DNA from: Thermofilum sp. NZ13
GTDB taxonomy: Archaea > Thermoproteota > Thermoprotei > Thermofilales > Thermofilaceae
NCBI GenBank assembly: GCA_002855745.1
Contig: NDWX01000015.1
Span: 1-42,052 of the forward strand
DNA length: 42,052 nucleotides
Direction of reading: 5' to 3'
In this document: piece by piece, positions 28,014 to 42,052 of the stretch
Numbering within the stretch: position 1 is the stretch's first letter
Layout: each line of letters starts with the position of its first letter
Program-made: the position numbers and the translations under genes
Notes under the pieces: model-generated
What the model was told of the DNA's origin: nothing
Databases searched by the model: none
What the model saw: only the letters and a program-made list of their open reading frames with translations

Positions 28014-29390
28014 GTGTCGAGGGTTAAGATCGCGGTCATAGGCGCTGGGAGCATCGCTTGGAGCTTTAAGGTTATTCACGACCTGCTTCACACGCCTACG
28101 CTATTCGGGAGCGAGGTCGTGCTCATGGACATCGACCAGGGAAGGCTGAGGCTCGTGGAGAGCTTTGCGAAGAGGTACGCCTCGGAGCTAGGCGCGGACA
28201 TCAAGTTCACCGCCACCTCCGACAGGCGCGAGGCGATCAGGGACGCCGACTTCGTCGTCAACACCGCGATGTTCGGCGGCCACGGCTACTACGAGAAGAT
28301 GAGGGAGGTGTCTGAGAGGCACGGCTACTACAGGGGCGTCAACAGCACCGAGTGGAACATGGTCAGCGACTACCACACAATCTGGGGCTACTACCAGTTC
28401 AAGCTCGCGCTGGAGGTGGCGAGGGACGTAGAGGAGCTAGCGCCCGAAGCATGGCTGCTTCAGCTGGCGAACCCGGTGTTCGAGCTCACCACGCTGATCT
28501 CCAGGGAGACTAGGGTTAAGGTCATAGGTCTGTGCCACGGCCACCTAGGCTACAAGGAGATCGCCCGCGCCCTCGGCTACGACCCCGAGAAAGTCGAGTT
28601 CGAGGCGATAGGCTTCAACCACGTGATATGGCTGACCAAGCTAACGTACCAGGGCAGGGACCTCTACCCCCTGATCGACGAGTGGGTGGAGCGCAGAGCC
28701 AGCGACTACTGGGAGAGGTGGAGGCTCACCCAGAGAGACCCATTCGACATACAGCTGAGCCCCGCCGCGGTCGACATGTACAAGCGCTACGGCCTCTTCC
28801 CCGTCGGCGACACCGTCAGGGGCGGGACCTGGATGTACCACTGGGACCTCAGGACGAAGCAGCGCTGGTACGGGCCAACAGGAGGGCCCGACAGCGAGGT
28901 AGGCTGGATGCTGTACCTGGCGAGGCACGAGTGGTACACGGGCCTGCTGGAGAGGCTCGCGTCGGACCCGAGGCTCCCGGTGTCCAGCTTCTTCCCGCCG
29001 GCAAGGACGGATGAGTCGCTGATACCCATCATAAACTCCATAGCGAACGACCAGCCAGCGGTGTACCAGGTGAACATACCCAACATGGGCTCCATCGACG
29101 GGCTCCCCGAAAACGTGGCCGTGGAGGTCCCGGCGGAGGTCTCCGGGAAAGGCGTCAGGAGGACTCCAGGCTTAAAGCTCCCCGGGAAGATACTCAAAGC
29201 TGTTCTCTGGCCCCGCATGATGCGGATGGAGATGGCTCTGACCGCCTTCCTGGAGGGGGGCAGGCAGATCCTCATAGACTGGCTCATGCTAGACCCCAGA
29301 ACAAAGTCCGAGAAGCAGGCCGAAGAGGCCTGGGAGGCGGTCCTCTCGCTCCCCGAGAACCAGGAGATGGCCCGACACTACAGGGGTTAA
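28014..29390 (+). CDS. GH4-family glycosidase, CHGH type (alpha-glucuronidase/galacturonidase-like)
   Basis: A 458-residue NAD- and Mn-dependent glycosidase acting by oxidation-elimination. The Rossmann start is VKIAVIGAGSIAWSF, followed by DFVVNTAMFGG, NSTEWN, ANPVFELT and the metal-binding CHGH (about 174-177), then GFNHVIWL. In GH4 the residues after CH correlate with specificity: CHSV with alpha-galactosidase, CHEV with alpha-glucosidase, and CHG with alpha-glucuronidase-type members. That suggests a uronic-acid substrate here; it is family knowledge, untested. The start is GTG 28014 with a TATA (GGTTATTTT, about 27983-27991) 25 bp upstream. No signal peptide, so intracellular. The stop TAA shares bases with the stop of the convergent HtrA gene. 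Confidence 0.88.
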   Translation: MSRVKIAVIGAGSIAWSFKVIHDLLHTPTLFGSEVVLMDIDQGRLRLVESFAKRYASELGADIKFTATSDRREAIRDADFVVNTAMFGGHGYYEKMREVSERHGYYRGVNSTEWNMVSDYHTIWGYYQFKLALEVARDVEELAPEAWLLQLANPVFELTTLISRETRVKVIGLCHGHLGYKEIARALGYDPEKVEFEAIGFNHVIWLTKLTYQGRDLYPLIDEWVERRASDYWERWRLTQRDPFDIQLSPAAVDMYKRYGLFPVGDTVRGGTWMYHWDLRTKQRWYGPTGGPDSEVGWMLYLARHEWYTGLLERLASDPRLPVSSFFPPARTDESLIPIINSIANDQPAVYQVNIPNMGSIDGLPENVAVEVPAEVSGKGVRRTPGLKLPGKILKAVLWPRMMRMEMALTAFLEGGRQILIDWLMLDPRTKSEKQAEEAWEAVLSLPENQEMARHYRG

Positions 29391-30319
29391 GGAGCCTCCT
29401 CAATCCGAACAACGTACTTCCTAACGACGCCCCTCCTGTAAACCTCAAGCTCAATGCTTTCTCCCACGCCTCGCTCCCTCAGGGTGGCGATGAGGTCGGA
29501 GACGCCTTTCAGCCGCCTCCCGTCGGCGGATAGTAGAATGTCCCCGGGCCTGATGCCCGCGCGGTGCGCAGGCCCCCCGGCGGCTATCCTCACAACGAGG
29601 ACCCCGCCTGGCTCCCTCAAGCCCAGCTGGAGCGCGACCATAGGAGTCACGTCCAAGCCGTAGACGCCTATCCAAGGCCTAACTATCCTGCCGAAGCGGC
29701 GAACCTGCTTCAGAGCCCAACGGACCTCGTTCACTGGGATGGCGAAGCCTATCCCCTGGGCGAAGGGTATCATGGCCGTCGTTATCCCGATGACCTCGGC
29801 GTCCAAGTTCACCAGAGGCCCCCCGCTGTTACCCGGGTTCACGGCCGCGTCGGTCTGAATCATGTTCTCGTAAACCTTCCCCTCGACTCGGAGAGTCCTG
29901 CCCACGCCGCTCACGATGCCGAACGTGAGCGACGGCCCGCCTAGTAGCTGGCCGAACGGGTTACCGATAGCGAGTACGAACTGGCCGATCTGAACCCTGT
30001 CGCTGTCCCCTAGCCTAGCCGGCTGCAGATCAGCCCCATCCACCCTGAGGAACGCGATGTCCCACTGTGGGTCCTCCGAAACGACCTCAGCCGGGTAGCT
30101 TTCGCCGTCGGGCGTCGTGACGGTAATCCTCTCGAAGCCCTCAACGACGTGCGAGTTAGTGGCTATGATGCCCCTGTCAACAGCAACTCCGGAGCCGAAG
30201 CCCGTTATGGGCGCTTGTGTGAAGAGGAAGTCGATGACCCTTAGGGTAGAGACGCCTACAACGCTCGGCAAAACCCTGTTGTAAACCTCGATAACCTTCC
30301 TCTGTAGCTCCTCTGCCAT
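29387..30319 (-). CDS. HtrA/DegP-like serine protease with PDZ domain, no signal peptide
   Basis: A 310-residue trypsin-like protease. The catalytic triad is H57 (ATNSHVV), D87 (WDIAFLRVD) and S165 (NPGNSGGPLV). A single PDZ domain (about 215-305: GVLVVRIAAGGPAHRAGIRPGDILLSADG) can bind exposed C-termini. Unlike bacterial DegP/DegS there is no signal peptide or anchor, so the enzyme is likely cytosolic, with a role in protein quality control. A minus-strand TATA (GTAAATA, 30341-30347) lies 25 bp before ATG 30319, giving a leaderless transcript. Convergent with the GH4 gene; the stop codons overlap in TTAA. Confidence 0.93.
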   Translation of the reverse strand: MAEELQRKVIEVYNRVLPSVVGVSTLRVIDFLFTQAPITGFGSGVAVDRGIIATNSHVVEGFERITVTTPDGESYPAEVVSEDPQWDIAFLRVDGADLQPARLGDSDRVQIGQFVLAIGNPFGQLLGGPSLTFGIVSGVGRTLRVEGKVYENMIQTDAAVNPGNSGGPLVNLDAEVIGITTAMIPFAQGIGFAIPVNEVRWALKQVRRFGRIVRPWIGVYGLDVTPMVALQLGLREPGGVLVVRIAAGGPAHRAGIRPGDILLSADGRRLKGVSDLIATLRERGVGESIELEVYRRGVVRKYVVRIEEAP

Positions 30320-30479
30320 ATGGCCGACGCCGCACAGTGGTATTTACGCGTATCGCCGGAAAATCGGCGGTAGAGGGCTATGGGTATCGATTTTAATCCC
30401 AACAGTATTAAATGAACAGATTACAGAAATGCTTATTAATTAACAGCGTGACAAATTTATACGTAAAAGGTGAAAGCAG

Positions 30480-31682
30480 TTGAATAAAGGCAGACTGTTT
30501 GGAGCGTTAATCCTGGCAGTGCTGGTGTTCTCGCTAGCGATAACACAGGTGGCTAAAGCCGAGAACCCCATCATCCAGGTGTCCGACCCCACGGGGGACG
30601 ACAAGGGCCCAGGCTTCTACGGCTACCCCACCGCTGACGTCTTCAAGCCGGGGGTTTTCGACATCGTGAAGTTCGAAGTCTACACAACAGACACCTCGGT
30701 AACCTTCAAGGTATACTTCAAGGATCTCGGCGGGAACCCGTGGGGCGGTAAAAACGGCTTCTGCCTCCAGCAGGTCCACATCTACATCCACACGGATGCA
30801 ACGCCGAACGTGCCCGCCAGGCTAAGCGCGGTATGACTGAACCTGAACTTCGACCCGACCTGGGCGTGGCACTACGCCCTCCTCATTGGCCCCTGCTGGG
30901 AAACACCCCCTCAGCCCCTGCCCACTGGGCAGTGCGCGGTCCTCTACAGGCCCTTCGACGAAGTCGTCCAGGGCGATAAGCTCAAGGTGAGCGTAGACGG
31001 CAACGCCATTGTAGCCACGGTTGACAGGGGTCTCTTCGAATACGGTGACGTCGGCAACATCAAGAACTGGAGGATCGTGGTGGCCGTAGCGAGCCACGAC
31101 GGCTTCGGCCCGCTGAAGATCAGAGGAGTTGGCCTCAGCAAGGGCGACTGGAACATCTGGGCCACTGCAACGGCAACTGATGCCCAGAAGACCCTGATAG
31201 CTAACGCCATCAAATTCGGCATCGAGCCCCGGGTGCTCGACATCGCAGTGTACGCGCCGGAGTACCCGAACGGTATTACAGCTGACCAGCAGTACGCGTG
31301 GCTCAGCAGCGTGGACATCGACGCAAAGATGCCGGCCACCATCCCGCCCATAACTTCCCAGGTGGTCGCGCAGCTCAAAGCCCAGCTTTCCTCCGTGACG
31401 CAGGAGAGGGACAGCCTCAAGTCGCAGGTCAGCAGCCTCCAGAGCCAAGTGTCGAGCCTGCAAAGCCAGCTTAGCAGCCTTCAGAGCCAGGTGAAGTCCC
31501 TTCAGGACCAGAACTCGCAGCTGTTAAGCGAGCTGGAGTCCCTCAGGGCTTCCACCATTAATACTGGAGTCGCGGCGGCTCTAGCGGTGGTGCTTCTGCT
31601 TGTCGGCATCGGCGCGGGCTACTTCCTTGGCAAGAGGAAACCCAAGGAGGCAACCGGGGGGACTCAAGTCAAAACTTCTTAA
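30480..31682 (+). pseudogene. DOMON/glucodextranase-C-like surface protein interrupted by an in-frame TGA
   Basis: One continuous reading frame of 401 codons, except for TGA at 30834-30836. It holds a signal peptide (1-27), a glucodextranase C-terminal (DOMON-like) carbohydrate-binding module (about 30-250, opening with VSDPTGDDKGPGFYGYP), a coiled coil of repeated SLQSQ heptads (about 300-355) and a C-terminal membrane anchor. The module is also present in the GH57 enzyme next door. Aligning the two places the TGA at a glycine (TFGLNVN versus SAV-stop-LNLNF), so a GGA to TGA change is the simplest cause. TTG 30480 follows an AGGTGA Shine-Dalgarno. Without readthrough, a free 118-residue fragment results. 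It may help bind starch at the surface. Confidence 0.8.
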
Positions 31683-31709
31683 AAGTATTTTTTCTTACAG
31701 GTGGTTTTG

Positions 31710-34700
31710 ATGAAGAATAGCAAAGTTGTGACTCTCGCCCTGACCCTAATCCTCCTCGCCGAGGTGCTGATGTACCCTGCTTTAGGCCAGCAGCCCTCAG
31801 GCACCCTCTACGTTGTGCTGATCTGGCACTACCACCAGCCCTGGTACTACGACGTGAATGGGACGTCTTTCCTGCTACCCTGGGCTAGAATGCACACGGT
31901 CGGGAACTACTACAAGATGGCTTACATCCTGTCGAAGCACCCCGACGTGAAGGCAACGTTCACCTTCTCGGGCTCGCTAGTGCAGCAGATCCTCGACTAC
32001 AACAGCGGCGTCAAAGACTACAGGCTCATCATATCCGAGAAGATCGCCGAGGGCCAGCCCCTGACCACAGAGGAGAAGTTCTCGATGCTCTCCATGCCGG
32101 GAGGCTTCTTCGACGTGAACTGGGACCGGGTCGTGAACGTGGTCCCGAGGTTCGCGGAGCTGAGGGATAGGGCTCAGAGGGCGCTGAGCGCGTACATAGC
32201 GCTCCCGGAGGAGGAGTACAAGAGGAGGGTGGCTGGCGAGTTCTCTGACCAAGACTACCTGGACCTCTCTGACCAAGACTACCTGGACCTCGCCGTGCTC
32301 TTTAACCTGTTCTGGATCGACCCCATGGTTTTGCGGGAGCAGTACCCCGACGTCTACCAGCTCAGGGTCCAGGCGCTTAACGGCGCCAGGGGCTTCACTA
32401 GGCAGCAGCTTCAAGCCGTGCTGAGCGTCCACAGGGACTTGCTGCGGAAGGTCCTACCGATGTACGCCTCCCTGGCCGAGAAGGGGCAGGCAGAGCTGAT
32501 ACCCGTGCCCTACAGCCACCCGCTGGCACCCATCCTCGCGGACCTAGGCCTGCTTGACGATGTTAAAGTCCACGTTTCCCTGAGCACGCAGCTCTTCCAG
32601 AGGGTGTTCAACTACAGGCCTGTTGGGATATGGCCCGCTGAGCAGGCTGTGAACGGCTACGTTCTCGCGGCCTTTGCAAGCGAGGGCTACACCTGGACCG
32701 TTACGGATGACACGATTTTAGTGAAGGCGGGTCTCAACCCATCTGACCCCTCGGTGGGTATGAAAGCCTGGTTCGCGACGCTCAACGGCACCAAGCTCTA
32801 CGTGTTCTTCAGAAACAGCGAGCTGAGCAACCTGATAGGCTTCCAGTACAGCAGAGGGGACTCGAAGCAGGCGGCTCAAGACCTCATAAACCGCCTGCTG
32901 TCACTCGCAAAGAGCAGTGATGGGACAAACGTCGTCGTCATAGCCCTCGACGGGGAGAACCCGTGGGAAAGCTACCCAGAGTTCGGCGACACTTTCCTCG
33001 ACAGTCTCTACTCGCTGCTGAGCGAGTACCAGTCTAAGGGTCTACTCACCACGATAACCCCGCGCGAGTACCTCGCGAAGTTCGCGGGCACCGCCCGTGA
33101 GTTGCCCACCAAGAGCTACAAGTACCTTGACCTAGCGGGCAGGGACATCTCGGACACCCCGTTAAGCCTCACCGAAGACGCCTACACGCAGCTGCCCAGA
33201 AGGGACGTTACCGCCCAGATACCTGAGGGCTCCTGGTCTGGGGGCGAGCTAGCGGTCTGGATAGGTCAAAGGCAGGAGAACGCTGCCTGGATGATGCTCG
33301 TCAAGACGAGGCAAGACGTGCTGAAAGCACTGGGAGTCAACAACCTCCGGGAAGCTCTGACCGTCAACCGGAAAGCGGCCGAAGACCTCCTGAGGGCGGA
33401 GGCCAGCGACTGGACATTCTGGTACGGCGGCGACATGGGAGGAGGCTTCCCAGCGAACCCGCTCTACAAGGGTTACCTCAGAAGAGCCTACGAGGACGCG
33501 GGGCTGAAGCCGCCGGACTACCTGCTGACCCAGTTCAACCCCGACGCTACACCAGTCGGCACGCTCAACAGGGATTATCCCAAACCCCCTGCAACCCCAC
33601 CGGAGCTCGACGGGAAGCTAAGCGCCGGGGAGTGGGCGGGCGCTCTCAACATGTCCCTAGGTGACAGGCTGTTCAGGAGCGTCCTCGTCCTCCCGACGGG
33701 CCAGGGCATGTACATCGCCGCCATCCCGGTCTCCAAGAGCTCTCTTGACGACGCGAAGACCGCCGTAGCCTTATACACCACCTGCAGCGCGAGGAGCGCG
33801 AGCCCATTCCACCCGGGCTTCAACTCGTTCCCACGGTACTCGAAGCTCGACATGGGCATGGGGCTATTCTACGAGGTGCTGGTGTACCCAGCGAACCTCA
33901 GCGTGGCTGTCAGCGCCGCTGACGGCCGCGGAGGGTGGACACCGCTATTCTACCTCAAGGCGTCAGTCGGGGACGCGGTGGAGGCGTTCGTGCCCTGGAG
34001 CGCGCTGGGTCTTAGCCAGGGAGAGCTATTCTACATTACAGCCGCCTCCTACTCAGGCTCAACAGTCGTGGAATCCGCCACTCGCGTCGGCTCTGTTTAC
34101 CAGATGATTGTGCCTCGCGCGGCTGCCACAGCTGCGGGGAAAGTCCTGTTCGAGATGAGCGACCCTGAGGGCGACGATGACGGGGCTGGAGGCTACAAAT
34201 ACCCCAAGGCTGACGTCTTCATACCAGGAGTATTCGACTTAACAAAGTTCAGGGTGGTGGACTCGGGAAGCAGCCTCACGTTCGAAGTGTACTTCAAGGA
34301 GCTTGGCGGGAACCCGTGGAGCGGCCCCAACGGCTTCTGCCTGCAGTACCCACAAATATACATACACACAACACTCAGCGTACCGGGGAGGACAGACACC
34401 TTCGGCTTAAACGTCAACATCACTGAAGACTCGGCGTGGCACATCGCGCTACTTCTGGCCCCGGGTTGGGGCTCCGACCCTGCCCCGAACGGCGAGAAGG
34501 CAGCGATCTACCTCTCAGACGGCACCGTCGCAGTACAGGACGGCAAGTTCAAAGTCTACGCCGATCCCGCGAGAAACGCTATAATAGCTGAGGTCTCGAA
34601 GGACATTCTCCCCGACGCCGGCAACGCGGATAAGTGGAAGTACGTTGTTGCTGTGACGAGCTACGACGGCTACGGCACGATGAAGATTAGGCCTTTTGGC

Positions 34701-35075
34701 CTAGACCCCGACGTCTGGGTCGTGGGCGCTGGCTCCAAGCACGCTAAAGCCGTACTCTTCAACGTCGTACCCCGCGTGATGGACCTGCTTGCACCCACCG
34801 CTCAAGACCAGTACGCGCAGCTCTCAAGCTACGTTGCGGAGAAGAACGGCACCCTGGCAAAGGTCCACGGCGTCTCACAGGCGACTGTGACGCAGCCCAC
34901 TCAGCAGTGCATATGCCCTGAGCCGCAGCAGCCGCAGTGCCCTGCCTGCCCGCAGTGCCCGCCGGCCACTCAAGTGGGGGTGAAGCCTGAGGAGCTTACA
35001 AGGTCACTGGTAGTGGGCCTGATAGCTGGAGTGCTTATCGGGCTAGCAGTCGCGATGCTCCTTCGAAGAAAGTGA
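31710..35075 (+). CDS. Membrane-anchored GH57 amylopullulanase-like enzyme with DOMON/glucodextranase-C module
   Basis: A protein of about 1121 residues; positions are counted from the longer GTG start at 31701. The signal peptide is about 4-30. The GH57 domain (about 35-480) has motif 1 WHYHQP (42-47), motif 3 GIWPAE with nucleophile E314, motif 4 TVTDDTI with acid/base Asp (336-337) and motif 5 DGENPWE (417-423). A linker region follows, then a carbohydrate-binding DOMON/glucodextranase-C module from about 813 (SDPEGDDDGAGGYKYP), a short Cys/Pro/Gln tail (about 1066-1085) and a transmembrane anchor. It should cut alpha-1,4 and alpha-1,6 bonds in starch or pullulan at the cell surface. ATG 31710 follows AGGTGG. 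A perfect 8-residue tandem duplication lies at 182-197. Confidence 0.92.
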   Translation: MKNSKVVTLALTLILLAEVLMYPALGQQPSGTLYVVLIWHYHQPWYYDVNGTSFLLPWARMHTVGNYYKMAYILSKHPDVKATFTFSGSLVQQILDYNSGVKDYRLIISEKIAEGQPLTTEEKFSMLSMPGGFFDVNWDRVVNVVPRFAELRDRAQRALSAYIALPEEEYKRRVAGEFSDQDYLDLSDQDYLDLAVLFNLFWIDPMVLREQYPDVYQLRVQALNGARGFTRQQLQAVLSVHRDLLRKVLPMYASLAEKGQAELIPVPYSHPLAPILADLGLLDDVKVHVSLSTQLFQRVFNYRPVGIWPAEQAVNGYVLAAFASEGYTWTVTDDTILVKAGLNPSDPSVGMKAWFATLNGTKLYVFFRNSELSNLIGFQYSRGDSKQAAQDLINRLLSLAKSSDGTNVVVIALDGENPWESYPEFGDTFLDSLYSLLSEYQSKGLLTTITPREYLAKFAGTARELPTKSYKYLDLAGRDISDTPLSLTEDAYTQLPRRDVTAQIPEGSWSGGELAVWIGQRQENAAWMMLVKTRQDVLKALGVNNLREALTVNRKAAEDLLRAEASDWTFWYGGDMGGGFPANPLYKGYLRRAYEDAGLKPPDYLLTQFNPDATPVGTLNRDYPKPPATPPELDGKLSAGEWAGALNMSLGDRLFRSVLVLPTGQGMYIAAIPVSKSSLDDAKTAVALYTTCSARSASPFHPGFNSFPRYSKLDMGMGLFYEVLVYPANLSVAVSAADGRGGWTPLFYLKASVGDAVEAFVPWSALGLSQGELFYITAASYSGSTVVESATRVGSVYQMIVPRAAATAAGKVLFEMSDPEGDDDGAGGYKYPKADVFIPGVFDLTKFRVVDSGSSLTFEVYFKELGGNPWSGPNGFCLQYPQIYIHTTLSVPGRTDTFGLNVNITEDSAWHIALLLAPGWGSDPAPNGEKAAIYLSDGTVAVQDGKFKVYADPARNAIIAEVSKDILPDAGNADKWKYVVAVTSYDGYGTMKIRPFGLDPDVWVVGAGSKHAKAVLFNVVPRVMDLLAPTAQDQYAQLSSYVAEKNGTLAKVHGVSQATVTQPTQQCICPEPQQPQCPACPQCPPATQVGVKPEELTRSLVVGLIAGVLIGLAVAMLLRRK
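32244..32291 (+). repeat. Exact 24-bp tandem duplication inside the GH57 gene
   Basis: The unit starting TCTGACCAAGACTACCTGG occurs twice without a mismatch, adding SDQDYLDL in frame in a helical part of the GH57 domain. Identity continues two bases to the left. It looks like a recent slippage or an assembly error. Confidence 0.9.
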
Positions 35076-35083
35076 AAGTGTTT

Positions 35084-37135
35084 TTAAGGCTTCTTTACCT
35101 TGTGGAGTATCCTCCAGGAATAGGGTTTAAGTACTTTCTCTCCTGCGCTATCGCTCGCCAGAACAGTCGCGTAGCCGTCGATGGGCGCGCTGATTTCCTT
35201 CTCGCCCGCGTTGAACACGACCATAACCTCCTCGCCTCTCCACTCCCTCATGATGGCCACAGCGCCCTCATTCGTAACTCGCGCGTCGAAGAAACCTAGC
35301 CTGAGGGGCGCCAGCGATCTCCTCAGGAATGCAAGGCGCCTGATGAGGCACTGCAGGTCCCTGTCCCACTTCTCCTCATCCCACAGCATGGGGAGCCTGT
35401 TGTCGGGGTCGCCGCCCCCGCGCATTCCAACCTCGTCCCCGTAGTATATGGAGGGGGAGCCGGGTAGCGCGAAGAGGACCACGTAGAGTAGTTTGAGGCA
35501 CCCGCTCCCGCACCGCTCGGCTAGTGTCGCGATGCGGGGCGTGTCGTGGCTGCCAAGCAGGTTGTACATGGAGCTCGCCGCGAAGACGGGGATGCGAGCG
35601 TAGAGCTCCTTGAGCCTTCTAACGAAGCTTACTGCGTCGGTGTTTCTGTACACGATGAAGTCTAGCAGAGCCTCCCTCAAGTCGTAGTTCATCGCCGAGT
35701 CAGCGGTGACGCCGTAGGGGTAGTAGACAACCCCCTTGCTCACCTCGAGTATCACCGGAGCATCCCTTTTCAGCCCCTTCACAGTCGAGTAGAGCTGCTT
35801 CAGGGCGGCGTCGGGCAGCGCGTGCCCAACGTCTATCCTCAAGCCGCTAGCCCCCTGGGTGAGCCAGAACGACGCCACCTGGCAGAGCCTCTCAACCACC
35901 CGCTGGTTCGAGTAGTTGAGCTTTGGCATCCCCCAGTTGCAGATGAAGGTCTCGTAGAAGGGCCTCCTACCGCGGAGCTCAGCGGGGAACTCCCTGCAAC
36001 CACCTGCGGTGAACGTTCTCAAAAGCTCCGCCTCCCGCTCGTCAAAACTGCTGAAGAACCTGAACCAGTCTTTGTACTCGCCGCCCTCGGACAGGGCTCT
36101 GAGGAATTCTGAGCTACACGGGGAAACGTGGTGGGCTACAATGTCCACTACGATCCTGATATTCCTTCTTTCGGCCTCCTTGACGAGCCTGCTCCAGCCC
36201 TCCCAGCCACCCAGATCCTCGTCAACCTCGGTGTGGTCGATGACGTCGTACCTGTGGTAGCTCACCGACCTGTATATGGGAGTCAGGTAGACCGCCTCGA
36301 CTCCCAGCGATGCTATGTAGTCGAGGCTCTCGGTCACGTCGCGCAGAGACCCACCTAGACGGGCACGGGGCCTGGTGTTGCCCGCGATGCTCATTTTGCT
36401 TCGGGTGAAGCTGTCCGGGAAGATCAGGTAGTAAGTGCTACCGACGTACCAGTACGGCTCATCGAGCCCCACGATCTCCCCGGGCTCGATGTAGCTCTCG
36501 TCTCCCAGGCCATTCTGACCGTAGTAGAGACGCTCGCCACCGGCCTCTAGGAGGAACCTGTAGCCCTCCACGTTGCCGCTGACTACTCCTTGGAAGTAGT
36601 CGACGAGCTCGGTGCTCACGTACCTCTGCATCTCGACCCTCTTTCCGTCATTTGTTTCGACGTAAACCCGATCTAGGAGACGCGTCGGAGCCTTAAAGCG
36701 TAGGATGGTGAAGCCCAGGTACCTGCTAACGAAGGAAGGGTCCCTTTCGTCGTGGACGAGAAGCTCGGACACCAGCCTACCCTCTCTGGCGGCCGTCGCG
36801 TAGTCCGCGACCCCGACCTCAGCTAGGGAAAACTCCTCCTCAACGCCGCTGTCAGGCCAAAGCCTCACCATCACCCTAAAAGGGTTCTCCACGTCAAGAG
36901 CGGTGAACCCGCACGTAGAGCTGAACCTGTAGGGGTACGAGCCCTCCCAAAGCGAGACAACAACCCTTCCCCTCTCGCCCTCGCGACTCAGCTCGACCCT
37001 TCCGGGGAAGTAGGATGTGAAGGGCGCTACGAGGTACAGGTACTCCACCCCCTCGGGCCACTTCAGCGAGAACTCAACCAGGTATCTTCCGAAGCGAGCC
37101 CCAGATATCCTCTCCCTCCCAAGTACCCTGTACAT
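35084..37135 (-). CDS. Intracellular GH13 alpha-glucan hydrolase (neopullulanase/cyclomaltodextrinase-like)
   Basis: A 683-residue GH13 enzyme without signal peptide. Residues 1-230 form N-terminal beta-domains. The TIM barrel (about 235-600) has region I DIVAHH (331-336), region II GLRIDVGH with nucleophile D435, region III VILEVSK with acid/base E464 and region IV LLGSHD with D531; a beta-sandwich ends the chain. H replaces N in region I (usually DxVxNH). GSPSIYYGDEVG is the typical late motif. It would trim maltodextrins or cyclodextrins brought in by the neighbouring importer. ATG 37135 is preceded by AAAGGAG, so this mRNA has a leader. It is divergent from the MalEFG operon and convergent to GH57. 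Confidence 0.9.
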   Translation of the reverse strand: MYRVLGRERISGARFGRYLVEFSLKWPEGVEYLYLVAPFTSYFPGRVELSREGERGRVVVSLWEGSYPYRFSSTCGFTALDVENPFRVMVRLWPDSGVEEEFSLAEVGVADYATAAREGRLVSELLVHDERDPSFVSRYLGFTILRFKAPTRLLDRVYVETNDGKRVEMQRYVSTELVDYFQGVVSGNVEGYRFLLEAGGERLYYGQNGLGDESYIEPGEIVGLDEPYWYVGSTYYLIFPDSFTRSKMSIAGNTRPRARLGGSLRDVTESLDYIASLGVEAVYLTPIYRSVSYHRYDVIDHTEVDEDLGGWEGWSRLVKEAERRNIRIVVDIVAHHVSPCSSEFLRALSEGGEYKDWFRFFSSFDEREAELLRTFTAGGCREFPAELRGRRPFYETFICNWGMPKLNYSNQRVVERLCQVASFWLTQGASGLRIDVGHALPDAALKQLYSTVKGLKRDAPVILEVSKGVVYYPYGVTADSAMNYDLREALLDFIVYRNTDAVSFVRRLKELYARIPVFAASSMYNLLGSHDTPRIATLAERCGSGCLKLLYVVLFALPGSPSIYYGDEVGMRGGGDPDNRLPMLWDEEKWDRDLQCLIRRLAFLRRSLAPLRLGFFDARVTNEGAVAIMREWRGEEVMVVFNAGEKEISAPIDGYATVLASDSAGEKVLKPYSWRILHKVKKP

Positions 37136-37269: not shown

Positions 37270-38769
37270 ATGCAAGAGGTGGGAGTTTTGAGTAAAACCG
37301 CAAGCCGAAATATCATAATCGCGGTGGTTCTCATCGTAGTGGCGCTAGGGATAGTGTACTTCTACTACCAGTCCACAATCGCCCCTCCCCCTAGCCAACC
37401 CACTCAGCCGACTCAACCGACGCAACCGTCCACCCCAGCTCAGCCGCCCCAGACGCCTCCCTCGAACGCCACTCAGCCCAGCCAGCCCCCAGCCCCTGCG
37501 TTGAAGACGATTACCATAGGTACCAGCACTATACGCGTGCCCAGCGACTTCTACGACTTCGTGCAGAAGGCTAAGACAGGGCAGATCCAGGTAACTATCA
37601 ACTTCTGGACTGGGATGAGCCAGTGGGAGGTGGACGTGATGAAGAACGTTATCGCGAAGTTCCAGCAGGAGTACCCCGGCATCACCGTCAAGTACACGAA
37701 CGTCCAGAACCTCAAGGAGCAGGTGAAAGCCGGCGTACTTACTGGCGACGTTGAGAACACGGCTCACGTTTTCACCTGGGCGCACGACTGGACGGGCGAC
37801 CTCGCCGACAGCGGCGCTATAGTGGCGCTGGATCAGTACCTGCCCCCCGAGACGCTCACAGACCTGAAGGCCCAGTACATGGCCTCTGCCTACACGAGCG
37901 GCATGTACAAGCTGCACCTCTACGGGCTACCCTGGGCGGCTGAGGCTATAGCGCTCGTGTGCAACAAGGACCTCGTGCCCTCGGCGCCGCAGACTTGGAG
38001 TGACTTCGAGAAGATAATGCAGCAGTGGTACAACCCCTCCAAGAACACGTACGGCATAGCGTACCAGATCGACCCCTACCACGTCTACCCGTTTGTCACT
38101 GCCTTCGGCGGCTTCTATTACGACGAGGACAGGAACGCGGTTGGCGTTAACAGCCAGGGAACGGTCGACGGGATAACCTTCTACATCCAGCACGTAATGA
38201 AGTACATGTACACCTCGGACGTTGGCATGGAGGCCCAGCTCAAGATACTTACCGACGGCAGGACCCCCTGCATGGTGACGGGCCCCTGGAACATACCCAC
38301 GATTAAGCAGAACATAAAGAACGTGGTCGTCTACCCGATACCGCCCATCGACGGGAAGACGCCAAAGCCCTTCTCTGGGGTGAAGCAGATGTGGGTGACT
38401 AAGGTCGTCGAGGGCGACAAGAACAGGCTCTACGCCTCAATACTGTTCACGATGTGGTTCACGCTGAACGATGATGCCCTGAAGACGCTCGCGGACGCGG
38501 GCTACATACCCGTCAAGCTCTCAATCCTCCAGTACCTGCAGGCTAACGCCGACAAGTACCCGACGATACTCGGCTTCGCCCAAGCCGTGTCAAACAGCGT
38601 TCCGATGCCCAAGTCGGCGAACATGAACTACGTCTGGGGACCTGTCGCGGATGTTTTGAACGCGATTGTGACCAAGTACAACGAGCAGGGAGAGCAGGCG
38701 GCGCTCAGCGCGGTTAAGCAGCTGCTCGATGACGCCCAGTCGAAGATCGTTGCCAAGATAGGAGGCTAA
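37270..38769 (+). CDS. Sugar ABC transporter substrate-binding protein (MalE-like)
   Basis: A 499-residue extracellular binding protein of the MalE family. A membrane anchor (about 13-35) is followed by a flexible linker of PTQ repeats (about 40-75), as typical for archaeal sugar-binding proteins held on the membrane. The two-lobe fold follows: TINFWTGMSQWEVDVMKNVIAKFQQEYPG, GLPWAAEAIALVCNKDLVP and GPWNIPTIKQNIKN are family stretches. Being next to GH57 and GH13 genes it likely binds maltodextrins. The start may be ATG 37270 or TTG 37288, which is preceded by GAGGTGGGAG. First gene of the importer operon. Confidence 0.9.
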   Translation: MQEVGVLSKTASRNIIIAVVLIVVALGIVYFYYQSTIAPPPSQPTQPTQPTQPSTPAQPPQTPPSNATQPSQPPAPALKTITIGTSTIRVPSDFYDFVQKAKTGQIQVTINFWTGMSQWEVDVMKNVIAKFQQEYPGITVKYTNVQNLKEQVKAGVLTGDVENTAHVFTWAHDWTGDLADSGAIVALDQYLPPETLTDLKAQYMASAYTSGMYKLHLYGLPWAAEAIALVCNKDLVPSAPQTWSDFEKIMQQWYNPSKNTYGIAYQIDPYHVYPFVTAFGGFYYDEDRNAVGVNSQGTVDGITFYIQHVMKYMYTSDVGMEAQLKILTDGRTPCMVTGPWNIPTIKQNIKNVVVYPIPPIDGKTPKPFSGVKQMWVTKVVEGDKNRLYASILFTMWFTLNDDALKTLADAGYIPVKLSILQYLQANADKYPTILGFAQAVSNSVPMPKSANMNYVWGPVADVLNAIVTKYNEQGEQAALSAVKQLLDDAQSKIVAKIGG

Positions 38770-38804
38770 ACCTCTGGTAATTTGGTAAACGGGTGCTTTT
38801 TCTC

Positions 38805-40280
38805 ATGCCCAAGAAGAGCGGGTCGGAGCTCTACCCGGCTCGAGTAGCCTTCCTGCTTATTTTCCTCAGCCTGGCCATGTACCTCTTCTTCTCACTCTGG
38901 CCGATCGCGTACTCCGTGTACATAGCTTTCACCGACGCCAACAACGTGAACATCGCCTCAGAGCCCAGGATTAAGGAGCTTCAGGCTCAGAGGGCAGTGA
39001 TAGCCAGCTACCTTTCTGCGAATAAGGAGAATGTTCTGAGTCAGGTGCGCAGGGCCGACGACTACCTGAGCGACGCCATCGCCTCGCTGCTCGAGCTGAA
39101 AACCCTTATCGCGTCGTCCACGCCCCAGAACTTCTCGATCAGCAGGCTCACCTTCATCAGGAGCAGGGTCGATGAAGACCTGACTTACGCCTCAAGCATC
39201 GTCAACAGCAACACCACTTTCCTCTACTACTACCGGGGCCTGGGCGACACCCTGTACAGGGCCGTCTCGATCGTTGACAGCGGCATATGGGGGGACGTGG
39301 ACAGGATCGTCGGCTTCAAGCTTGCCTTGAGCGAGAACGACCTGAGCCAGCTGCGCGAAGCTGTTCTCCCAAAGGTAGATCAGGCGTTAGGCCTGCTGCA
39401 GCAGAGCAGGGACCGCCTCAGGGAGGTCGAGGGAAACTACGACCTGTTAGTGGGCTCCGCGACTGCTGGCATTGACCAGGAGATAGACAGGATTTCGATG
39501 CACTTCGTGGGCCTGCAGAACTTCCAGACCCTCTTCACGGACTCGCGCTTCCCCTACTCCATTTTCAAGACCCTGCTATTCGTGCTGACCAGCGTTCCCC
39601 TAAAGGTAGCCGTGGGAGTCTCCCTGGCCTTCCTTTTCTCAAGCCCCATGATCTACGGCCGGAAGGCGATGCGAGCCGCCCTGCTCGTACCCTGGGCCCT
39701 CCCAGTCCTGCTCTCCGTAACCACCTGGAGGATGATGTTCGCCCCAGGCATAGGGCCCGTGGCAAACTACCTCGCGTCGATCGGCGTGGACTTCAGCATA
39801 TACAACAGGGAGTGGGACGCCTTCCTTGTGTACAACATAGTTGAGATGTGGCTCGCCTACCCGTTCATAATGACCGTCACTATGGCGGCTATCTCCTCCA
39901 TTCCCAAGGAGCTAATAGAGTCTGCAATGGTCGACGGCGCCTCGTTCTGGCAGCGCTTCAGGGAAATAATGCTCCCCCTGACCTCCCGCCCAGTGCTGTT
40001 CGCGAGCATCCTGACGGCAGGCGCCTCGCTTCAGGCATTCATGGTTCCTCTGCTCATCAACAACGGGGGGCCGACGAAGGAGATCCAGTTCCTCTGGTTC
40101 TCCAGGACAACCGGAGGAGTCAACGAGATGATGGTGCTCTTCGGCTACAACAGGGCCTACCTGGACCAGCAGTATGGGCTCTCCACCGCCGCGTACCTGG
40201 TCGTCGTGCTGATACTGCTGCTATACGCCCTAGCGTGGTACTACCTGATATACAAGCGGACCTCACCGGGTGGTGCGTGA
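38805..40280 (+). CDS. Sugar ABC transporter permease (MalF-like) with a large extracellular helical insert
   Basis: About 491 residues. After TM1 (about 20-43) there is an extracellular region of about 200 residues predicted to be mostly coiled or helical, before TM2, as in MalF-type permeases; it may contact the binding protein. The C-terminal half has the MalF-type permease helices and the EAA loop, IPKELIESAMVDGASFWQRFREIMLPL. ATG 38805 is preferred over the in-frame GTG 38793 because GGGTG nine bases upstream may act as Shine-Dalgarno. The stop TGA overlaps the start of the next permease (TGATG). Confidence 0.88.
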   Translation: MPKKSGSELYPARVAFLLIFLSLAMYLFFSLWPIAYSVYIAFTDANNVNIASEPRIKELQAQRAVIASYLSANKENVLSQVRRADDYLSDAIASLLELKTLIASSTPQNFSISRLTFIRSRVDEDLTYASSIVNSNTTFLYYYRGLGDTLYRAVSIVDSGIWGDVDRIVGFKLALSENDLSQLREAVLPKVDQALGLLQQSRDRLREVEGNYDLLVGSATAGIDQEIDRISMHFVGLQNFQTLFTDSRFPYSIFKTLLFVLTSVPLKVAVGVSLAFLFSSPMIYGRKAMRAALLVPWALPVLLSVTTWRMMFAPGIGPVANYLASIGVDFSIYNREWDAFLVYNIVEMWLAYPFIMTVTMAAISSIPKELIESAMVDGASFWQRFREIMLPLTSRPVLFASILTAGASLQAFMVPLLINNGGPTKEIQFLWFSRTTGGVNEMMVLFGYNRAYLDQQYGLSTAAYLVVVLILLLYALAWYYLIYKRTSPGGA

Positions 40281-41131
40281 TGGCGAGGTACTGGCTGAGG
40301 CTCGTAGGCGCGGTAGCGCTGACGACGCTCTCCTTCCTAATAGTTTTCATTCTGCTGTACCCCGTCCTCTTCGCGGTGCTGACCAGCCTCGTTCGAGGAC
40401 AGAGCCTCGTGACCGACCCAGCCCAGATACTCGCAACTGGCATCTCGCTCGAGCACTACCTGAAGGCCGTCAGCGACCCCCGTTTCATCAACGCGACAGT
40501 CCTGAGCCTGCTCGTCGCGGTCACGAACATCGTCTTCGCCCTAGTGGTGATCACCCCAGCCGCCTACGCTTTCTCGCGCTTCAAGTTCCCCGGCAGGGGC
40601 GCGCTCCTTGTAGCCTACCTTGTCCTGAACCAGGTGGGCGGGGGCTTCGGGGTAGCGGCGGTCATAGCCCTCTACGTGATGCTCCTCAAGCTGAACCAGA
40701 TCGGCGTCCCCGTCATCGGAAACCCAGTCGTGCTGGCAGCCATCTACACCGCGGGCGCGGTCCCCTTCCAGACGTGGATGGTGAAAAACTACCTCGACGC
40801 CCTGCCGCGCGAGATCGACGAGTCCGCGTTCATTGACGGCGCCAGCTGGAGGCAGATAATCTTCGACGTGGTCCTCCCGGCCTCCAAGCCCACGATGATC
40901 GTGATAGCTCTCTTCGCCTTCATGGGCGCCTGGGGGGAGTTCATCATAGCGAACTTCCTGAGGATCGAAACGCTGGCCGCCTACGTCTACGAGACCGCCA
41001 CGAGCCAGACAATATTCTGGAGCGACTTCGCCGCCCGGACGATAATTTTTGCCATCCCGATAATAGCCATATACGTCTTCACGCAGAAATACATCGGCGA
41101 AGCGATGAGATACGGGGCGGGAAAACTCTAG
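40280..41131 (+). CDS. Sugar ABC transporter permease (MalG-like)
   Basis: A 283-residue permease with six hydrophobic segments. The EAA loop is LPREIDESAFIDGASWRQIIFDVVLPASKP near residues 173-202, the site that docks the ATPase. ATG 40280 overlaps the MalF stop (TGATG); the same frame stays open far upstream (to 39848) but that part lies inside the MalF gene and is not used. With MalE and MalF it makes an importer lacking only the ATPase, which must be encoded elsewhere. The fragment at the start of the window is of the right class. Confidence 0.92.
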   Translation: MARYWLRLVGAVALTTLSFLIVFILLYPVLFAVLTSLVRGQSLVTDPAQILATGISLEHYLKAVSDPRFINATVLSLLVAVTNIVFALVVITPAAYAFSRFKFPGRGALLVAYLVLNQVGGGFGVAAVIALYVMLLKLNQIGVPVIGNPVVLAAIYTAGAVPFQTWMVKNYLDALPREIDESAFIDGASWRQIIFDVVLPASKPTMIVIALFAFMGAWGEFIIANFLRIETLAAYVYETATSQTIFWSDFAARTIIFAIPIIAIYVFTQKYIGEAMRYGAGKL

Positions 41132-41170: not shown

Positions 41171-42052
41171 ATGCCTGAGGAGTTTGAGCCCTATCCGGCT
41201 TTTGTCAAGCGCGGCTACACCCCGGACCCGGATGAGGAGGTGGTTGTCACCTTCAGGGTTACGCCCGCGGAGGGCTTCACAGTCGAGGACGCGGCCGGCG
41301 CGGTCGCGGCCGAGAGCAGCGTCGGGACCTGGACCACTCTCTACCAGTGGTACGACCAGCGCAGGGTTGACAGGCTGATGGGCAAGGCCTACGAGTTCCG
41401 CGACCTCGGCGACGGCTCTTACCTCGTCCGCGTCGCCTACCCCGCGGAGCTCTTCGAGGAGGGCAACATGCCCGCCTTCATGGCATCAGTAGCGGGCAAT
41501 GTGTTCGGCATGAAGAGGGTCAAGGGGCTTAGGGTCGAGGATATCTACCTCCCCCCGAGGTTCCTGAGGGCTTTTAAAGGCCCCTCGAAGGGCATACAGG
41601 GTGTTCGCGAGGTTCTCGGCATCAGGGGGAGGCCGATCGTAGGCACCGTTCCGAAGCCCAAGGTCGGCTACACGCCCGAGGAGGTGGAGAGGCTTGCCTA
41701 CGAGCTCCTCGTGGGGGGCATGGACTACGTGAAGGACGACGAGAACCTAGCCAGCCCGAGCTACTGCAGGTTCGAGGAGAGGGCTAGAGCCGTGATGAGG
41801 GCGATCGACAGGGCGGAGCGGGAGACGGGTGAGAGGAAGGCCTGGTTCGCGAACATCACCGCCGACGTCAGGGAGATGGAGCGCCGGCTCAAGCTCGTCG
41901 CGGACTACGGGAACCCCTACGTGATGGTCGACGTCGTGGTGGCCGGCTGGGCCTCCCTCGGCTACGTGAGGGACCTGGTGGAGGAGCACGGCCTCGCGAT
42001 CCACGCCCACCGCGCTATGCACGCCGCCTTCACGAGGAACCCCTACCACGGC
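41171..42052 (+). CDS. rbcL: Form III (archaeal) ribulose-1,5-bisphosphate carboxylase large subunit, 3' end beyond window
   Basis: The first 294 codons of an archaeal RuBisCO; the 3' end runs off the window. Catalytic blocks seen are GTVPKPKVG (substrate-binding Lys), GGMDYVKDDEN (carbamylated Lys and Mg-binding Asp/Glu), and HAHRAMHAAFTRNPYHG (active-site His and Arg). The N-terminal YVKRGYTPDPDEEVV-like opening and absence of plant/cyanobacterial insertions fit form III. In archaea this enzyme works in the AMP (nucleoside) salvage route, giving 3-phosphoglycerate. Whether the partner genes (AMP phosphorylase, R15P isomerase) are present cannot be seen here. Confidence 0.95.
   Translation, partial: MPEEFEPYPAFVKRGYTPDPDEEVVVTFRVTPAEGFTVEDAAGAVAAESSVGTWTTLYQWYDQRRVDRLMGKAYEFRDLGDGSYLVRVAYPAELFEEGNMPAFMASVAGNVFGMKRVKGLRVEDIYLPPRFLRAFKGPSKGIQGVREVLGIRGRPIVGTVPKPKVGYTPEEVERLAYELLVGGMDYVKDDENLASPSYCRFEERARAVMRAIDRAERETGERKAWFANITADVREMERRLKLVADYGNPYVMVDVVVAGWASLGYVRDLVEEHGLAIHAHRAMHAAFTRNPYHG

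What the first reader, a model, noticed from the sequence alone, without database searches (positions are those of the whole stretch)
30480..31682. In-frame TGA in a surface carbohydrate-binding protein, located by its paralog
The frame stays open on both sides for 401 codons. The DOMON module of the GH57 enzyme next door aligns across the stop and has a glycine there. Codon GGA to TGA is one step. The promoter side, coiled coil and anchor all look intact, so the change is recent, is an error, or is read through.
Basis: seen in the sequence. Interest (0 to 1): 0.6.

Follow-up and report, generated by a model that had tools for sequence, protein, structure and literature searches.

The report
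Recent nonsense mutation in surface-protein gene
A gene for a membrane-anchored, starch-system surface protein of a heat-loving archaeon carries a single premature stop codon that its relatives lack; everything points to a very recent one-base change (or a base error in the assembly) rather than to a new way of reading the code, so it is ordinary.

Summary
The frame 30480-31682 (+) is open for 400 codons except for one TGA at 30834-30836. Three same-genus genomes have the gene as one uninterrupted ORF (73-82% identity), with Gly, Gly and Ala at the site; the neighbouring GH57 enzyme's module has Gly. This rules out two genes. The part after the stop is under strong purifying selection (dN/dS about 0.04; one window-specific amino-acid change in 171 residues), so an inactivating stop must be younger than about 2% of the branch since the nearest relative. 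No selenocysteine tRNA above cut-off, no SepSecS, no recognised UCA-anticodon tRNA and no unusual RNA structure were found; TGA ends 40 of 128 long ORFs. Among about 720 ORFs compared with the nearest relative, this genome has one more such stop (FeoB, TGA at a conserved Cys codon) and the relative has one of its own (TAG, acetyl-CoA synthetase). Lone nonsense changes are therefore normal here and not confined to TGA. Best reading: a very recent, possibly still polymorphic, nonsense mutation. A consensus base error is the main rival and needs reads to exclude. Functional readthrough is possible but unsupported.

The parts
30480..31682 (+). interrupted gene: signal peptide, Glucodextran_C (DOMON-like) module, coiled coil, C-terminal transmembrane anchor
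30834..30836 (+). in-frame TGA, codon 119; Gly in two orthologs and the GH57 paralog, Ala in the nearest ortholog
30454..30474 (+). TATA-like box (TTTATA) and Shine-Dalgarno-like GGTGA ahead of the TTG start
   Evidence: read from the sequence; inference
31701..35075 (+). GH57 glycosidase (amylopullulanase-like) with its own C-terminal Glucodextran_C module and anchor; intact
29387..30319 (-). divergent HtrA-type serine protease, intact; same place in the nearest relative
35084..37135 (-). GH13 alpha-amylase / cyclomaltodextrinase-like enzyme, intact
37270..41131 (+). MalE/MalF/MalG-like maltodextrin ABC transporter genes, intact

Best explanation
The gene normally encodes one secreted, membrane-anchored carbohydrate-binding protein that works beside the GH57 enzyme and the maltodextrin transporter. 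In this genome a single-base change (most simply GGA to TGA) has very recently created a nonsense codon, possibly still polymorphic. Translation should end after 118 residues, within the beta-rich module, giving a fragment with no coiled coil or anchor, so the gene is a freshly broken pseudogene. The GH57 enzyme's own module and anchor could partly cover the loss. Shown: the stop, intact orthologs, and selection on both sides of the stop. Inferred: that the base is real, the loss of function, and the compensation.
For: One internal stop and no other lesion. Orthologs in G005, G004 and G001 are uninterrupted (G001 partial at a contig end) with Ala/Gly at the site; gene order around it is conserved in G005. 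After the stop dN = 0.055 and dS = 1.44 against G005, with 1 window-specific change in 171 residues; neutrality for more than about 2% of the branch would leave more. In 1.13 Mb of this genome against 1.22 Mb of G005 (about 720 ORFs, 219,000 codons) there are 2 clean internal stops here and 1 (TAG) in G005. TGA ends 40 of 128 long ORFs. [quoted passage not shown]
Against: No reads were available, so a base error is not excluded. Both internal stops found in this genome are TGA, expected with probability about 0.03 if stops arise at random from its codon usage (TGA share 0.183). The selection on the distal part is equally expected if it is still translated.
Confidence: 0.55

Rival explanations
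1. Consensus base error: the cell's gene is intact and the assembly carries a wrong base at 30834-30836 (low coverage, DNA damage or strain mixture).
For: The genome is in 33 contigs. Selection after the stop looks undisturbed. A second lone stop occurs in FeoB. The simplest change for this stop, and the FeoB stop measured against the G005 codon, are both G:C to T:A, a known damage signature (damage link from general knowledge).
Against: Two nonsense changes would imply roughly 50 substitution errors in the 660 kb of codons compared (nonsense share 3.7%), a rather high error rate. The single-contig genome G005 shows a similar rate of lone stops (1 against 2).
Confidence: 0.33
2. Functional readthrough: UGA is decoded by a near-cognate tRNA often enough to make useful full-length protein, perhaps lowering expression.
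For: Strong purifying selection after the stop. Both internal stops here are UGA, the leakiest stop by general knowledge. Conserved in-frame stops are proposed as readthrough in bacteria (PMC7918605) and interrupted archaeal genes can be expressed (PMC8211752).
Against: No relative shares the stop. tRNA-Sec hits are below cut-off and fall on tRNA-Val and tRNA-Leu genes; no SepSecS; no UCA-anticodon tRNA recognised. RNA around the stop is not unusually structured (z -0.5 to -1.1). The contexts of the two TGAs differ.
Confidence: 0.1
3. Two genes: a short secreted half-domain and a separately started anchor protein.
For: A GTG start exists at 30987.
Against: All relatives with the gene have one ORF. 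The Pfam domain runs across the stop. No convincing ribosome-binding site precedes 30987, and the ATG overlapping the stop opens only a 48-codon frame in another phase. The second part would lack a signal peptide.
Confidence: 0.02

Closest known systems
Glucodextran_C (PF09985), the DOMON-like C-terminal module of glucodextranase (PDB 1ug9, 1ulv)
   Same: Read-through sequence matches PF09985 at 9e-58 over residues 31-289, nearly the full model; weak match to 1ug9 over residues 33-128.
   Different: Here the module stands alone between a signal peptide and a coiled coil plus anchor, without a catalytic domain, and is split by a stop.
Intact orthologs in G005, G004 and G001, and stand-alone homologs of about 390-430 aa in eight genomes of one genus of the same class
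   Same: Same architecture: signal peptide, module, linker or coiled coil, transmembrane helix, basic tail.
   Different: None carries an internal stop.
In-frame stops in otherwise intact prokaryotic genes (PMC7918605; archaeal review PMC8211752)
   Same: Single stop in a gene under purifying selection, with no further decay.
   Different: The published set was restricted to stops shared by two or more species; this one is in a single genome.

Membership tests
Glucodextran_C (DOMON-like) protein | Match to PF09985 over the model length above its curated cut-off | tested here: met
   195.9 bits against cut-off 22, model 1-227 of 228, with the TGA read through
Glucodextran_C (DOMON-like) protein | Binds carbohydrate | not testable with these tools
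   Inferred from family and neighbourhood only
Recent pseudogene | Relatives carry an uninterrupted gene | tested here: met
Recent pseudogene | Function lost and the base truly present in the cell | not testable with these tools
   No reads, no expression data
Selenoprotein / UGA recoding | tRNA-Sec and the archaeal Sec synthesis enzyme in the genome | tested here: not met
   No tRNA-Sec above cut-off, no SepSecS; genome about 99% complete
Selenoprotein / UGA recoding | Stop, or Cys, conserved at the site in orthologs | tested here: not met
   Gly, Gly, Ala in orthologs
Programmed readthrough | RNA structure or conserved context downstream of the stop | tested here: not met
   z-scores -0.5 to -1.1; stop not conserved

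The most novel reading that the evidence does not exclude
This archaeon tolerates or uses UGA readthrough at standard genes: this surface protein and FeoB, where the TGA replaces a conserved Cys codon, are both still made full length by a near-cognate tRNA, without selenocysteine machinery.
Probability: 0.06. Interest if true: 0.6.

Novelty: already known. Interest (0 to 1): 0.15.

Why it matters
As found, it matters little: sporadic, very young nonsense changes (or base errors) in single genomes are common. It is a clean example that one genome's stop should not be called recoding before orthologs, decoding machinery and the background rate of lone stops are checked. The FeoB stop gives a second site for a cheap readthrough test.

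Tried and rejected
Codon-usage scan for interrupted genes: too weak in this genome; replaced by ortholog comparison. Selenocysteine, suppressor tRNA and RNA-structure searches: negative. Restart at the ATG overlapping the stop: out of phase, 48 codons. Viral contigs: no relative; genome contigs gave only partial or coiled-coil matches; plasmid matches were distant modules, mostly in haloarchaea. Structure prediction from a 3-sequence alignment was poor (mean pLDDT 52), so no fold search was run. Many raw stop hits lie in shadow frames or upstream of starts and were discarded by flank and identity filters plus reading by eye.

Full report
Observation. The frame 30480-31682 (+) starts at TTG, runs 400 codons to TAA and holds one internal stop, TGA at 30834-30836, codon 119. 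Read through, it has a signal peptide-like N-terminus, a PF09985 Glucodextran_C module (E 9e-58, residues 31-289, across the stop), a coiled coil, a transmembrane helix and a basic tail. The GH57 enzyme 18 bases downstream carries the same module (47% identity over 250 columns, Gly at the site).

Relatives. In the same genus, G005 (82%), G004 (73%) and G001 (78%, cut by a contig end) have the gene as one ORF. The codon at the site is GCC (Ala) in G005, GGA (Gly) in G004 and GGC (Gly) in G001. HtrA upstream and the GH57 gene downstream are conserved in G005. Two other same-genus genomes gave only coiled-coil matches. Eight genomes of another genus in the class have stand-alone homologs of about 390-430 aa, all uninterrupted, with an anchor. 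Two separate genes are therefore rejected.

Age of the stop. Against G005, the domain after the stop has dN 0.055, dS 1.44 and dN/dS 0.04, lower than before the stop (0.10) and than the intact GH57 gene (0.09). Only one amino-acid change in 171 residues is specific to the window's lineage. With about 389 nonsynonymous sites and a branch dS of 0.5-0.7, more than about 2% of the branch spent without constraint would leave more changes. So the stop is very young, is an error, or does not prevent use of the distal part. dS is near saturation, so this bound is approximate.

Decoding machinery. tRNA-Sec hits are below cut-off and coincide with tRNA-Val and tRNA-Leu genes. SepSecS is absent while two archaeal control genomes ring. 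Among 43 tRNA matches, the only TTCA outside the T-loop lies in what reads as the intron of a tRNA-Ser(TGA); many tRNAs here have introns, and a tRNA missed by the model or split inside the anticodon cannot be excluded. TGA is the terminal stop of 40 of 128 long ORFs in the sample. RNA folding around the stop is unremarkable.

Background rate. The whole genome was not available as a file, so stretches were taken: 1.13 Mb of this genome and 1.22 Mb of G005. Across about 720 ORFs and 219,000 aligned codons, clean internal stops in real coding frames were: here, this TGA and a TGA in FeoB at the conserved Cys of GFGCNVPA (C13:135694; the Pfam Gate domain spans it); in G005, a TAG replacing GAG in acetyl-CoA synthetase. 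The open orthologs of FeoB carry no stop in the relatives matched, and a second FeoB-like gene without a stop lies on C1. Lone stops thus occur in both genomes and are not all TGA. Two of two TGA here has probability about 0.03 from codon usage, a weak hint that I do not rely on.

Mechanism. Expected consequence: termination after 118 residues, part-way through the beta-rich module, and loss of the coiled coil and anchor. The predicted strands and helix are low confidence. TTAAAAGTA at 31679-31687 could be a separate promoter for the GH57 gene; this is inference from sequence only. Function of the intact protein (holding alpha-glucan near the enzyme and the maltodextrin transporter) is inferred from family and neighbourhood.

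Literature. In-frame stops within prokaryotic genes are widespread and mostly short-lived (PMC7918605). In archaea the review PMC8211752 describes stop-codon recoding for selenocysteine and pyrrolysine and reports many interrupted genes, some expressed, and one later traced to a possible sequencing error. This case fits that known pattern.

Noticed in passing
L086:5695 (+), i.e. G000:C13:135694: FeoB is interrupted by an in-frame TGA at the conserved Cys of GFGCNVPA in the gate domain; matched relatives have no stop in the gene and G005 has TGC there. A second FeoB-like gene without a stop lies at C1:24418-26376.
   Followed up: partly
L159:1398 (-), i.e. G005:C1:621398: The relative's acetyl-CoA synthetase has an in-frame TAG where this genome has GAG (90% identity).
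   Followed up: partly
G000:C13 about 169525 (-), in L218: Possible frameshift: an 823-aa ORF of G005 with no Pfam match aligns to two frames here (75% and 69% identity).
   Followed up: no
L065 (G000:C21:5936-6028), L054 and L063-L064 (C9:29727-30286) and others: Many tRNA genes have introns at unusual places, which misleads ARAGORN (four-base anticodons such as ctca).
   Followed up: partly
window 41171-42052 (+): Type III RuBisCO large subunit directly after the maltodextrin transporter genes; the same order holds in G005.
   Followed up: no
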